Shown: positions 55,237 to 58,293 of the stretch, piece after piece
Numbering within the stretch: the stretch's first letter is position 1
Layout of the letters: the number at the start of each line of letters is the position of its first letter
Source: Thermococcus guaymasensis DSM 11113
Lineage (GTDB): Archaea > Methanobacteriota_B > Thermococci > Thermococcales > Thermococcaceae
DNA: 64,000 nucleotides
Direction of reading: 5' to 3'
NCBI RefSeq assembly: GCF_000816105.1
Contig: NZ_CP007140.1
Location: 1,514,388 to 1,578,387, forward strand
Position numbers and translations under genes: made by a program
Notes under the pieces: generated by a model
Seen by the model: only the letters and a program-made list of their open reading frames with translations
Told to the model about the DNA's origin: nothing
Databases searched by the model: none

Positions 55237-55677
55237 GTGAAGATGGACGAGAGCACGAAGAAATTAACAAGATCCAGAAAGAACCGTGTCTTCTTTGGAG
55301 TCGTTGGGGGTTTAGCTGAGTACCTGAATATAGATCCCACTCTCCTCAGGGTTATACTTGTCGTTCTGCTGGTCTTCAACCCCTTTGCAATGATACTTCT
55401 CTACTTCCTGCTCGCTCTTGTCATCCCAGAAGAGAACCGCGAAGAAAGGCCCCTTGGAGATAGGCTCAGTGAGCTAGCCGAAGAGACTGAAAAACGGGTC
55501 AATGAAATAATTTCAAGTGGTGACACCAGAACCCTTGCCATAATCCTGATAGTACTGGGAGCGACCCTCGTGGCAAAGTCCTTCCTTCCTCTGATAATCA
55601 GGCCCGTGGATGAAACAACGCTCTTGGCGATCGTGCTCCTTATCATGGGTGCAATACTGCTCGTGGAGGGTGATTGA
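55237..55677 (+). CDS. PspC-domain membrane protein
   Basis: The protein has 146 residues from a GTG at 55237 well spaced from GGAGGT; an ATG at 55243 is possible. The PspC domain is N-terminal (FFGVVGGLAEYLNIDPTLLRV, then a helix and YFLLALVIPEE), followed by a linker and two more membrane helices. PspC proteins respond to membrane stress. It leads a three-gene unit with a small membrane protein and a CitG-like enzyme. Confidence 0.88.
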   Translation: MKMDESTKKLTRSRKNRVFFGVVGGLAEYLNIDPTLLRVILVVLLVFNPFAMILLYFLLALVIPEENREERPLGDRLSELAEETEKRVNEIISSGDTRTLAIILIVLGATLVAKSFLPLIIRPVDETTLLAIVLLIMGAILLVEGD

Positions 55678-55678
55678 C

Positions 55679-55906
55679 GTGAGGACGCTTGGGATAATCT
55701 TCATCTTTATTGGGCTCGTTCTCCTGCTGAAGCAGTTCAATCCGGAGTTTATAGCCTGGCTTCGGCCGTATGCAGGGGCTATAAAGAATGCCTTCTGGGG
55801 TGTTACACTTATAGCCCTAGGCCTTTACCTTATGGCGAAGAGAACCGCCAGAAAAGTCGTACTAGCTCTGTATCTCGTATATCTGATCATTTACCTGGTG
55901 GTGTGA
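55679..55906 (+). CDS. Small membrane protein after the PspC gene
   Basis: The protein has 75 residues from a GTG at 55679 with GGAGGGTGAT just upstream. It has three hydrophobic segments separated by short basic loops (LGIIFIFIGLVLLLKQF; AFWGVTLIALGLYLMAKR; VVLALYLVYLIIYLVV). It resembles the helical second half of the PspC protein. It abuts the CitG-like gene exactly. Confidence 0.7.
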   Translation: MRTLGIIFIFIGLVLLLKQFNPEFIAWLRPYAGAIKNAFWGVTLIALGLYLMAKRTARKVVLALYLVYLIIYLVV

Positions 55907-56833
55907 ATGGAGAGGTGGAAGATAGTCCGTGCATTCCTCCTCGGGCCGCTTATCGAGGCAGCGGTTCCCAAGCCCGGCAACGTAAACCGCTTTAGGGACT
56001 TCGAGGATTTGACATTTTACCACTTCCTGTTTGCGGACACGGCCGTTGCGGGGGTTTACTACGAGGCCGTGAAGACCGCGGAGCTTTTGAAGAAAGGCAT
56101 TCTTGAGCCCTGGGAAGCAGGATTGGGGGAGCTGATGCGGCGGGCAGTTCAGGCGTCGCGCGAGGCTCAAGACGCCAACCCAAACTTCGGTATCATTGCC
56201 CTCTCACTTCCGCTCATGATGGGGATGGCAATCGGGAGAAACATGCTTGATGCAAGGAAAAAGGCGAGACTTCTGATAGAAGAATCAACGGTCAGGGACA
56301 CCATGGAGTTCTACCGGGCGATACGGATTGCCAACCCCAAGGGAATCCCCAGCGGCGTTAAATATGACGTCTATTCCGACGACTCCTTCAGAGAGCTGTT
56401 CCAGGACGAAATAAACCTGGCAAGGCTGGCTGAGATAAGCTGTGAGCGAGAGCTGATATTCTGCGAGTGGCTCAATGAATACGAGCTGAGCTACTCGACC
56501 TTCGGACGTCTCTACGAGCTGATAAAGGAGCTTCCACTGGAAGATGCCGTGGTGAGGGCCTTCGTAGAGCTGCTCGCGAACAACCTTGACACGCTCATCA
56601 TACGAAAAGCAGGGGTTGAAGAGGCGAAGCTTGTCCAGGAGAAAGCAAAGAAAGTTCTCAAGGGGGAACTGACCGTTGAGGAGCTGGACGCTTTTATGCG
56701 GGAAAAAGGCGACCTGAGAAACCCGGGTAGCTTGGCCGACATTATGGCAGTCTCGCTCAGCCTGCTCGTCTTGAGGGGATTAAGAATAGAATTGAAAGAT
56801 GGAAAAGTCTGGGGAGTTACAGGACGACCTTAA
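55907..56833 (+). CDS. CitG/MdcB-family protein (triphosphoribosyl-dephospho-CoA synthase-like)
   Basis: The protein has 308 residues, all helical, with the family blocks EAAVPKPGNVNRF, ANPNFGIIALSLPLMM and RNPGSLADIMAVSLSLLV. In bacteria CitG builds the citrate lyase prosthetic group from ATP and dephospho-CoA. No citrate or malonate lyase gene is in the window, so the archaeal substrate is an open question. Its end overlaps the DUF1884 gene by 17 bases. Confidence 0.85.
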   Translation: MERWKIVRAFLLGPLIEAAVPKPGNVNRFRDFEDLTFYHFLFADTAVAGVYYEAVKTAELLKKGILEPWEAGLGELMRRAVQASREAQDANPNFGIIALSLPLMMGMAIGRNMLDARKKARLLIEESTVRDTMEFYRAIRIANPKGIPSGVKYDVYSDDSFRELFQDEINLARLAEISCERELIFCEWLNEYELSYSTFGRLYELIKELPLEDAVVRAFVELLANNLDTLIIRKAGVEEAKLVQEKAKKVLKGELTVEELDAFMREKGDLRNPGSLADIMAVSLSLLVLRGLRIELKDGKVWGVTGRP

Positions 56834-57098
56834 AGCGCTTCGCCCCACCCAAACCGAGGCCTAGCGCCTTGCTGTCTATAACAACCGCGTCTCCTTCAAG
56901 CTCCTCCAGAACCCTGACTTTCAGTCCCGAAAGCTCAATGACGTCTTCCTCACCTCCAAATTCTTCCCTCACTTGCTCTTTTATAAAATCGTAGGCCTGT
57001 TTCCCGACCACCACAACATCTGGGTTGTATCCATCGAGTTTTAGCTCATTGGCCTTCTCTTCCACTGTACTCAGAATACGGATCAAGTCTCCTCTCAT
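56817..57098 (-). CDS. DUF1884 protein, probable family 4 (A-domain) mini-encapsulin
   Basis: The protein has 93 residues. The sequence (RGDLIRILSTVEEKANELKLDGYNPDVV, then DAVVIDSKALGLGLGGAKR) strongly recalls P. furiosus PF0899, a structure with only the axial domain of the HK97 phage capsid fold that has been classed as a family 4 encapsulin. This identification is from memory of the family. The ATG follows GGTGTAAACC, and GGCTTTTAAG at about 57130-57138 is its TATA. No obvious cargo enzyme shares its strand. Confidence 0.65.
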   Translation of the reverse strand: MRGDLIRILSTVEEKANELKLDGYNPDVVVVGKQAYDFIKEQVREEFGGEEDVIELSGLKVRVLEELEGDAVVIDSKALGLGLGGAKRFKVVL

Positions 57099-57144
57099 GG
57101 TTTACACCGATAAAAGATGAAGGGCGGAACTTAAAAGCCTTCCT

Positions 57145-57786
57145 TCAGAGCCCAAAAGCTCCCTTGATCCCGTTTATGATCATCTGCACGGCCATTGAGG
57201 TCAGTATCAGACCCATCATTCTCGTCATCACTTTGATACCAACTCTTCCAAGTCTTTTCTGTATCCTGTTGGAAGAGCAGAGAACCAGCCAGACCGTTAG
57301 GCCTATCGCTAGGATGCTTGCTATTACTGCAGCTTTCTCCGGGATGGTAGTGCTCTTGGCGGTATAGATCATCACGGTGGTTATCGCACCCGGGCCGGAG
57401 ATCAGTGGTATTGCGAGCGGGATTATGGCGACTTCCTCCAGTGTAACGACTTCTTCGCTGAACTCCTCTGTTTCTTCATCGCTTATCTTTACTGAGGACA
57501 ACTTTCCGGACAGCATCTCCATCGCCATCTTGAAGAGAAGAATGCCGCCGGCTATGGCAAAGGCATCTACACTGGAACCAAAGAACCGAAATATCCACTG
57601 CCCGAGGAGGGCAAAGACCATGAGCGTTACCGCTACGGTTATGGATGTTTTTCTTGCTATCTCTCGCCGCACTCCCTCTGAGAGGTCGTGGGTAACGCTG
57701 AGGAACACTGGGACAGCGCCAATGGGATTCGTTATGGCAAAAAGCCCGGAATAGATTATGAGAAAGTACTTAATGGCCTCTATCAC
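57145..57786 (-). CDS. MarC/SnatA-family membrane transporter
   Basis: The protein has 213 residues and six membrane helices. The family motif NPIGAVPVFLSVT is near residue 20 and a second, IPLAIPLISGPGAITTVM, near 125. The Thermococcus sp. KS-1 member SnatA carries small neutral amino acids such as glycine and alanine, so a similar role is likely. It starts at a GTG with GGTGATAAA directly upstream. Confidence 0.92.
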   Translation of the reverse strand: MIEAIKYFLIIYSGLFAITNPIGAVPVFLSVTHDLSEGVRREIARKTSITVAVTLMVFALLGQWIFRFFGSSVDAFAIAGGILLFKMAMEMLSGKLSSVKISDEETEEFSEEVVTLEEVAIIPLAIPLISGPGAITTVMIYTAKSTTIPEKAAVIASILAIGLTVWLVLCSSNRIQKRLGRVGIKVMTRMMGLILTSMAVQMIINGIKGAFGL

Positions 57787-57827
57787 TTTATCACCCTGTG
57801 CGGCTGGAAGAAAGGAAGTTAAAAAAA

Positions 57828-58235
57828 CTAACTTTTGATGATCTCGACAGAATACGTAACTTCCGCTCCACTGAGCTTCATGTGTGCACTTGCGGAGCAG
57901 TATTTATCCTGGCTGAGTTCTATTGCTCGCCGGGCTTTCTCCTCGCTCACATTTCCGTAGATCTTGTAGTGGAGATGGACTTTCTTGTATATCCGGGGAT
58001 GCCCTTCTCTCCTTTCTCCTGAGATCTCGACCTCAAGGCCTTCAATTGGCTCCCTCATTTTATTGAGGATCATAACAACGTCGTAGGCAGTGCAGCCAGC
58101 AACGCTTAGAAGGAGGAGCCTCATCGGGCTTATGCCGCCCTCTCCGAGGATGATTGAGCACTTATCACCTTCTATACTCCCGATGAATTGATAGTCTTTA
58201 AACCACTCTACTTTACCTTTAATTTCGTCTGCCAT
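57828..58235 (-). CDS. OsmC-family protein
   Basis: The protein has 135 residues. The two catalytic cysteines of OsmC/Ohr proteins are at Cys48 (SVAGCTAYDV) and Cys113 (DKYCSASAHM). The family reduces organic peroxides with thiols. The ATG at 58235 follows GGGTGA. It is divergent from the radical SAM gene, with a 58-base gap that contains both promoters. Confidence 0.92.
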   Translation of the reverse strand: MADEIKGKVEWFKDYQFIGSIEGDKCSIILGEGGISPMRLLLLSVAGCTAYDVVMILNKMREPIEGLEVEISGERREGHPRIYKKVHLHYKIYGNVSEEKARRAIELSQDKYCSASAHMKLSGAEVTYSVEIIKS

Positions 58236-58293
58236 ATTTTTCACCCATCAGGGTAAACGCAATCCCTTTTAAGGCCTTTTCGTAGGCACAGAC

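What the first reader, a model, noticed from the sequence alone, without database searches (positions are those of the whole stretch)
56817..57098. Probable family 4 mini-encapsulin without an obvious cargo gene
The 93-residue protein resembles P. furiosus PF0899 (DUF1884), which keeps only the axial domain of the HK97 capsid fold. Neighbours are a CitG-like enzyme (convergent, overlapping) and MarC, so a shell-forming or scaffolding role for a metabolic enzyme is open.
Basis: partly seen in the sequence, partly recalled or inferred. Interest (0 to 1): 0.6.

Follow-up and report, generated by a model that had tools for sequence, protein, structure and literature searches.

The report
Mini-capsid protein beside OsmC, Thermococcus
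This small archaeal protein keeps only one domain of a virus-capsid fold and belongs to an already described family (4A encapsulins) found in nearly every Thermococcus and Pyrococcus genome; the 'missing' candidate partner gene, OsmC, is in fact there, but the gene seems to have its own promoter and its neighbours keep changing, so the published idea that it wraps its neighbour's enzyme is weakly supported.

Summary
In detail: 56817-57098(-) encodes a 93-aa relative of PF0899. It passes NCBIfam's family 4A encapsulin model (E 4e-48). Its AlphaFold2 model matches 2PK8 (TM 0.96), and the next Foldseek hits are almost all HK97-fold capsids and encapsulins.

"Without an obvious cargo gene" is wrong. 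OsmC, MarC and this gene follow one another on the same strand, exactly the published 'OsmC-type' family 4A arrangement (Andreas & Giessen 2021). The genome also has a 4B copy overlapping DeoC.

New here: 94 Thermococcaceae genomes weaken the neighbour-is-cargo idea for 4A. The gene is in all 74 good-quality genomes (dN/dS 0.06-0.10), but OsmC is linked in only 57 of 82 loci, and in Pyrococcus-type genomes sulfhydrogenase genes lie there instead. Only the convergent CitG-like gene stays (75 of 76 loci outside that genus). A TATA-like element precedes the start in 78 of 78 loci (shuffle mean 6.4), and at about -30 in 8 of 8 Pyrococcus-type loci; DeoC-linked 4B copies lack one (0 of 17).

Most likely it is an independently transcribed, capsid-derived adaptor acting through a nearly invariant N-terminal helix. 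Assembly was not testable. Ordinary as a find; useful as a correction.

The parts
56817..57098 (-). Family 4A A-domain encapsulin-like gene, 93 aa
   Evidence: NF041190 E 4.4e-48; PF08967; 2PK8 E 3.2e-28; AF2/Foldseek
57130..57137 (-). TATA-like element CTTTTAAG of the 4A gene's own putative promoter, in the MarC/4A gap
   Evidence: Position conserved in 78/78 loci outside the Pyrococcus-type group; coordinates from the gap sequence
57105..57108 (-). GGTG ribosome-binding motif
   Evidence: Present at -13..-4 in 75/78 loci
57145..57786 (-). MarC-family membrane protein, 46 bp upstream of the 4A gene
   Evidence: PF01914 E 1.6e-61; same-strand within 4 kb of 4A in 45/82 loci
57828..58244 (-). 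OsmC-like protein, the published candidate enzyme of this arrangement; ATG at 58235 is the likelier start. Three cysteines (29, 51, 116), two of them in the usual OsmC positions
   Evidence: PF02566 E 2.7e-16; solved OsmC relatives; within 4 kb of 4A in 57/82 loci
55907..56833 (+). CitG-like gene, convergent, 17-bp 3' overlap; the most constant neighbour
   Evidence: PF01874 E 4.6e-50; convergent in 75/76 loci outside the Pyrococcus-type genus, overlap 8-17 bp in 76/77

Best explanation
The gene encodes a family 4A protein: a capsid-related domain reduced to the HK97 A-domain. It is a housekeeping gene of Thermococcaceae that appears to be transcribed from its own promoter and here lies next to OsmC and MarC. 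I think it most likely works as a small oligomer (dimer or pentamer), not as a closed icosahedral shell, and docks one constant partner (itself or a common cellular protein) through its nearly invariant N-terminal helix. OsmC is only a possible partner. Shown here: family membership, predicted fold, conservation, neighbour turnover and a conserved promoter-like element. Inferred: the oligomeric non-shell mode, the adaptor role and the role of the N-terminal helix.
For: Fold = HK97 A-domain only. Present in all good-quality Thermococcaceae genomes, with purifying selection in every gene context. Neighbours turn over while the protein stays. TATA-like element in 78/78 loci, dinucleotide-shuffle mean 6.4 and maximum 12, plus 8/8 Pyrococcus-type loci at -30/-29; CitG control 7/76; DeoC-linked 4B copies 0/17. 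N-terminal helix: 74% of positions at least 90% conserved, including polar residues all round the helix. No P-domain or E-loop, which make the contacts between capsomers in HK97-fold shells (established knowledge). 2PK8 crystallised as a dimer (PMC8346489).
Against: The authors who defined the family expect self-assembly into pentameric facets and put the 2PK8 dimer down to the tag. For 4B, complex formation with GAPDH in P. furiosus is reported by them from a proteomics study, so enzyme neighbours can be real partners in the family. A promoter of its own does not exclude read-through from OsmC-MarC. No oligomer was modelled here.
Confidence: 0.5

Rival explanations
1. OsmC-type A-domain encapsulin as published: the protein assembles into pentameric facets or a small shell that holds or stabilises OsmC, with MarC as accessory, for peroxide or osmotic stress defence.
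For: OsmC and MarC lie directly upstream, same strand, gaps of 41 and 46 bp. This matches a published arrangement. OsmC is within 4 kb in 57/82 loci and directly adjacent in two whole genera (g29, g30).
Against: OsmC has moved away or is absent in 17 of 74 loci outside the Pyrococcus-type genus and in all of that genus. Genome G111 (99% complete) has the 4A gene but no close OsmC, and in MAG G016 the OsmC beside an intact 4A gene carries 7 in-frame stops. Distances show no covariation with OsmC beyond the other neighbours (partial r 0.00, against 0.42 MarC and 0.55 CitG, weak test). OsmC ends with its domain, without a tail.
Confidence: 0.2
2. A self-assembling mini-shell or pentamer that does not depend on the neighbouring genes, with an unknown cargo or none.
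For: HK97 A-domain fold; the authors' structural superposition on pentameric facets; conservation independent of gene context.
Against: No P-domain or E-loop for contacts between capsomers (established knowledge); the only solved structure is a dimer.
Confidence: 0.2
3. A functional pair with the convergent CitG-like enzyme, the most constant neighbour.
For: Convergent CitG-like gene in 75/76 loci outside the Pyrococcus-type genus, with 8-17 bp 3' overlap in 76/77. Highest partial distance correlation with the 4A protein (0.55). No PF06857 acyl carrier protein in the genome for a normal CitG to modify.
Against: Convergent genes are not co-transcribed. Overlapping 3' ends can freeze gene order without shared function, and joint transfer of adjacent genes also raises the correlation. 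In Pyrococcus-type genomes the two genes are far apart.
Confidence: 0.1

Closest known systems
P. furiosus PF0899 (PDB 2PK8), family 4A A-domain encapsulin-like protein
   Same: Orthologue: 52-53% identity, TM 0.96 over 92 columns, same N-terminal RGDLIRIL helix
   Different: Gene lies near the sulfhydrogenase in Pyrococcus-type genomes, here beside OsmC-MarC; Pyrococcus-type copies look leaderless
OsmC-type family 4A arrangement (Andreas & Giessen 2021, PMC8346489)
   Same: OsmC, MarC, 4A in this order on one strand
   Different: Own TATA-like elements before the 4A gene and apparently before MarC and OsmC question a single transcript
Family 4B with DeoC or GAPDH (own genome C1:854810-855037)
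   Same: Same Pfam family and A-domain; 30% identity
   Different: 4B lacks most of the RGDLIR start of the helix, overlaps DeoC in 15 of 17 DeoC-linked loci and has no TATA-like element of its own
HK97 major capsid protein and classical encapsulins (families 1-2)
   Same: A-domain topology (8cfa TMq 0.58, 1ohg 0.53, encapsulins 7odw and 9bkx 0.47-0.56)
   Different: No P-domain, E-loop or N-arm; about a third of the length; no sequence match in phage records

Membership tests
Family 4A A-domain encapsulin | Sequence family PF08967, subfamily model NF041190 | tested here: met
   161.6 bits against cut-off 90; 4B model only 38.1 bits
Family 4A A-domain encapsulin | About 100 aa, HK97 A-domain fold only | tested here: met
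   93 aa; AF2 pLDDT 89.5; 2PK8 TM 0.96, then HK97-fold hits
Family 4A A-domain encapsulin | Located downstream of an enzyme gene (OsmC with MarC) | tested here: met
   OsmC 57828-58244, MarC 57145-57786, same strand
Family 4A A-domain encapsulin | Operon (shared transcript) with that enzyme | tested here: inconclusive
   Short gaps allow read-through, but a conserved TATA-like element precedes the 4A gene; no RNA data
Encapsulin in the strict sense | Complete HK97 fold with P-domain and E-loop | tested here: not met
   Only the A-domain is present
Encapsulin in the strict sense | Self-assembly into a closed shell | not testable with these tools
   No multimer prediction or EM available
Encapsulin in the strict sense | Dedicated cargo with a targeting peptide | tested here: inconclusive
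   OsmC has no tail beyond its domain, but no loading rule is known for family 4
Hydrogenase-type family 4A arrangement | Sulfhydrogenase genes next to the 4A gene | tested here: not met
   The alpha-subunit orthologue lies at C1:1346821, about 225 kb away

The most novel reading that the evidence does not exclude
A capsid-fold domain has become an autonomous, non-encapsulating housekeeping adaptor in all Thermococcaceae, with one constant partner bound through the N-terminal helix. The adjacent OsmC, MarC or hydrogenase genes would then be bystanders, so the published cargo classes for family 4A would not reflect function.
Probability: 0.4. Interest if true: 0.5.

Novelty: already known. Interest (0 to 1): 0.3.

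Why it matters
Family 4 is the least understood encapsulin family, and its proposed functions rest largely on gene neighbourhood. If, as the comparison here suggests, the 4A gene is independently transcribed and keeps its sequence while its neighbours change, experiments should look for a common partner by pull-down before testing OsmC or the hydrogenase as cargo. It also separates 4A from 4B, where an overlapping gene pair with DeoC is well supported.

Tried and rejected
Convergent fold instead of an HK97 relation: disfavoured, since nearly all top Foldseek hits in two libraries are HK97-fold proteins. Recent phage origin: no match in phage records and only a chance-level PHROG hit. Co-assembly with a classical encapsulin in this genome: no PF04454. 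Sulfhydrogenase as local partner: its alpha-subunit orthologue is about 225 kb away. Co-occurrence as evidence for a partner: uninformative, because the 4A gene, CitG-like gene, OsmC and sulfhydrogenase are all near-universal in the family. Relatives outside Thermococcaceae: the one genome-contig scan returned only Thermococci, but its patterns were taken from 4A and would miss 4B/4C-like sequences; the 21 other genomes of the phylum searched had none. Papers on 2PK8 and on P. furiosus native complexes were not held. Thermococcus transcript-start papers were read only for the promoter consensus; per-gene tables were out of reach. The distance-correlation test is weak evidence, because pairwise distances are not independent and linked genes can be transferred together.

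Full report
What is there. The minus strand of the window carries, in order of transcription, OsmC (58244-57828; the likelier start is the ATG at 58235), MarC (57786-57145) and the 93-aa gene of the finding (57098-56817). A CitG-like gene (55907-56833, +) converges on it and overlaps its 3' end by 17 bp. The 93-aa protein is a family 4A A-domain encapsulin-like protein by NCBIfam's own model, 161.6 bits against a cut-off of 90, with the 4B model at only 38 bits. It matches the solved PF0899 structure 2PK8. The genome is a Thermococcus by its nearest named relatives.

Fold. An AlphaFold2 model from 51 sequences (50 4A and one 4B; mean pLDDT 89.5) superposes on 2PK8 with TM 0.96. The following Foldseek matches are almost all HK97-fold capsid proteins and encapsulins, and viral models give the same picture. 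Individual E-values for those are weak (0.03 and above in the PDB), but the consistency is strong.

What is known. Andreas & Giessen 2021 (PMC8346489) described family 4, its subfamilies 4A-C and four archaeal arrangements: hydrogenase and OsmC (4A), GAPDH and DeoC (4B). [quoted passage not shown] The window is exactly that. The same paper states that Thermococcus and Pyrococcus generally carry one 4A and one 4B copy. This genome does too: its 4B copy overlaps DeoC by 11 bp. So the claim of no obvious cargo gene is wrong, and the system is not new.

New comparison, neighbours. In 94 Thermococcaceae genomes the 4A gene is over the cut-off in 88, and the six others are all under 90% complete. 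Purifying selection is strong in every gene context (median dN/dS 0.06-0.10). Among 82 loci with enough upstream sequence, OsmC lies within 4 kb on the same strand in 57 and MarC in 45; sulfhydrogenase genes are near it only in the Pyrococcus-type genus, in 7 of 8 loci. In one of those (L098, whose protein differs from PF0899 at two of the 91 aligned residues) four opposite-strand ORFs separate the two. OsmC and the sulfhydrogenase are nevertheless encoded in nearly all these genomes. The one constant neighbour outside the Pyrococcus-type genus is the convergent CitG-like gene (75 of 76, the last having a 1.8-kb insertion in between), with an 8-17 bp overlap in 76 of 77. Overlapping 3' ends may freeze this order mechanically, so I do not read it as proof of a functional link.

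New comparison, promoter. Upstream of the 4A start codon a TATA-like element at -42..-32 is present in 78 of 78 loci outside the sulfhydrogenase-linked Pyrococcus-type group, against a mean of 6.4 and a maximum of 12 in dinucleotide shuffles. After removing similar upstream regions it is still 39 of 39 (shuffle mean 2.9). A GGTG ribosome-binding motif is present in 75 of 78. In the 8 Pyrococcus-type loci the element sits at -30/-29 in 8 of 8 and the GGTG is missing, as expected for leaderless mRNAs. The spacing fits the T. kodakarensis promoter map (TATA about 23 bp before the start site, 5'-UTR median 16 nt, about 14% leaderless; PMC4247193). Controls with the same motif list: CitG shows the element in 7 of 76; the 17 DeoC-linked 4B copies show it in none, and 15 of them overlap DeoC by 1-14 nt. 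MarC and OsmC also seem to have elements of their own. Two cautions: I set the motif list after looking at the upstream sequences, so the shuffle figures are descriptive; and in the 4B control the start codon nearest the DeoC stop was chosen, which favours overlap.

Mechanism. The N-terminal helix (residues 3-21) is by far the most conserved part: 74% of positions are at least 90% conserved, including G3, R7, S10, E13, E14, K15, N17, E18 and K20, residues that point in all directions round a helix. It does not change when the neighbours change. The simplest reading is a constant partner, either the protein itself or one common cellular protein. Without P-domain and E-loop a closed shell seems unlikely to me, though the discoverers hold it possible and it is untested. 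OsmC as cargo is further weakened by a lack of covariation (partial r 0.00 against 0.42 for MarC and 0.55 for CitG), by genome G111, which has the 4A gene but no close OsmC, and by MAG G016, where OsmC beside an intact 4A gene carries seven in-frame stops (assembly error possible). I put 0.5 on a non-shell adaptor or oligomer, 0.2 on the published OsmC-cargo model, 0.2 on a neighbour-independent mini-shell or pentamer and 0.1 on a CitG-linked role.

Verdict. The useful new point is that gene neighbourhood is weak evidence for cargo in 4A, in contrast to 4B.

Noticed in passing
55237-56833 (+): The CitG-like gene follows a PspC-domain gene and a LiaI/LiaF-like membrane gene almost without gaps, although the genome has no citrate-lyase-type acyl carrier protein (PF06857) for a normal CitG to modify; its real substrate is unclear.
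   Followed up: partly
57819-57827 and 58267-58274 (-): MarC and OsmC each seem to have their own TATA-like element (MarC in 38 of 47 orthologues), so the OsmC-MarC-4A row may be three separately started genes.
   Followed up: partly
L033:8331-9200, L046:8325-9230, L061:8342-10143: In about 20 loci one or two genes for a roughly 290-aa protein with an N-terminal membrane anchor (cluster 15) are found in the neighbourhood, often inserted between MarC and the 4A gene; family unknown.
   Followed up: no
BFVD matches A0A127AW84 (phage SP-15, 128 aa), A0A068EMQ5 (phage CP-51, 82 aa), A0A410N6Q3 (HFTV1, 76 aa): Small uncharacterised phage proteins match the 4A model over most of their length, so stand-alone A-domain-like proteins may also exist in phages.
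   Followed up: no
L064 (G016:C377:4990-5319): OsmC next to an intact 4A gene carries seven in-frame stops in this MAG; decay or assembly error.
   Followed up: no
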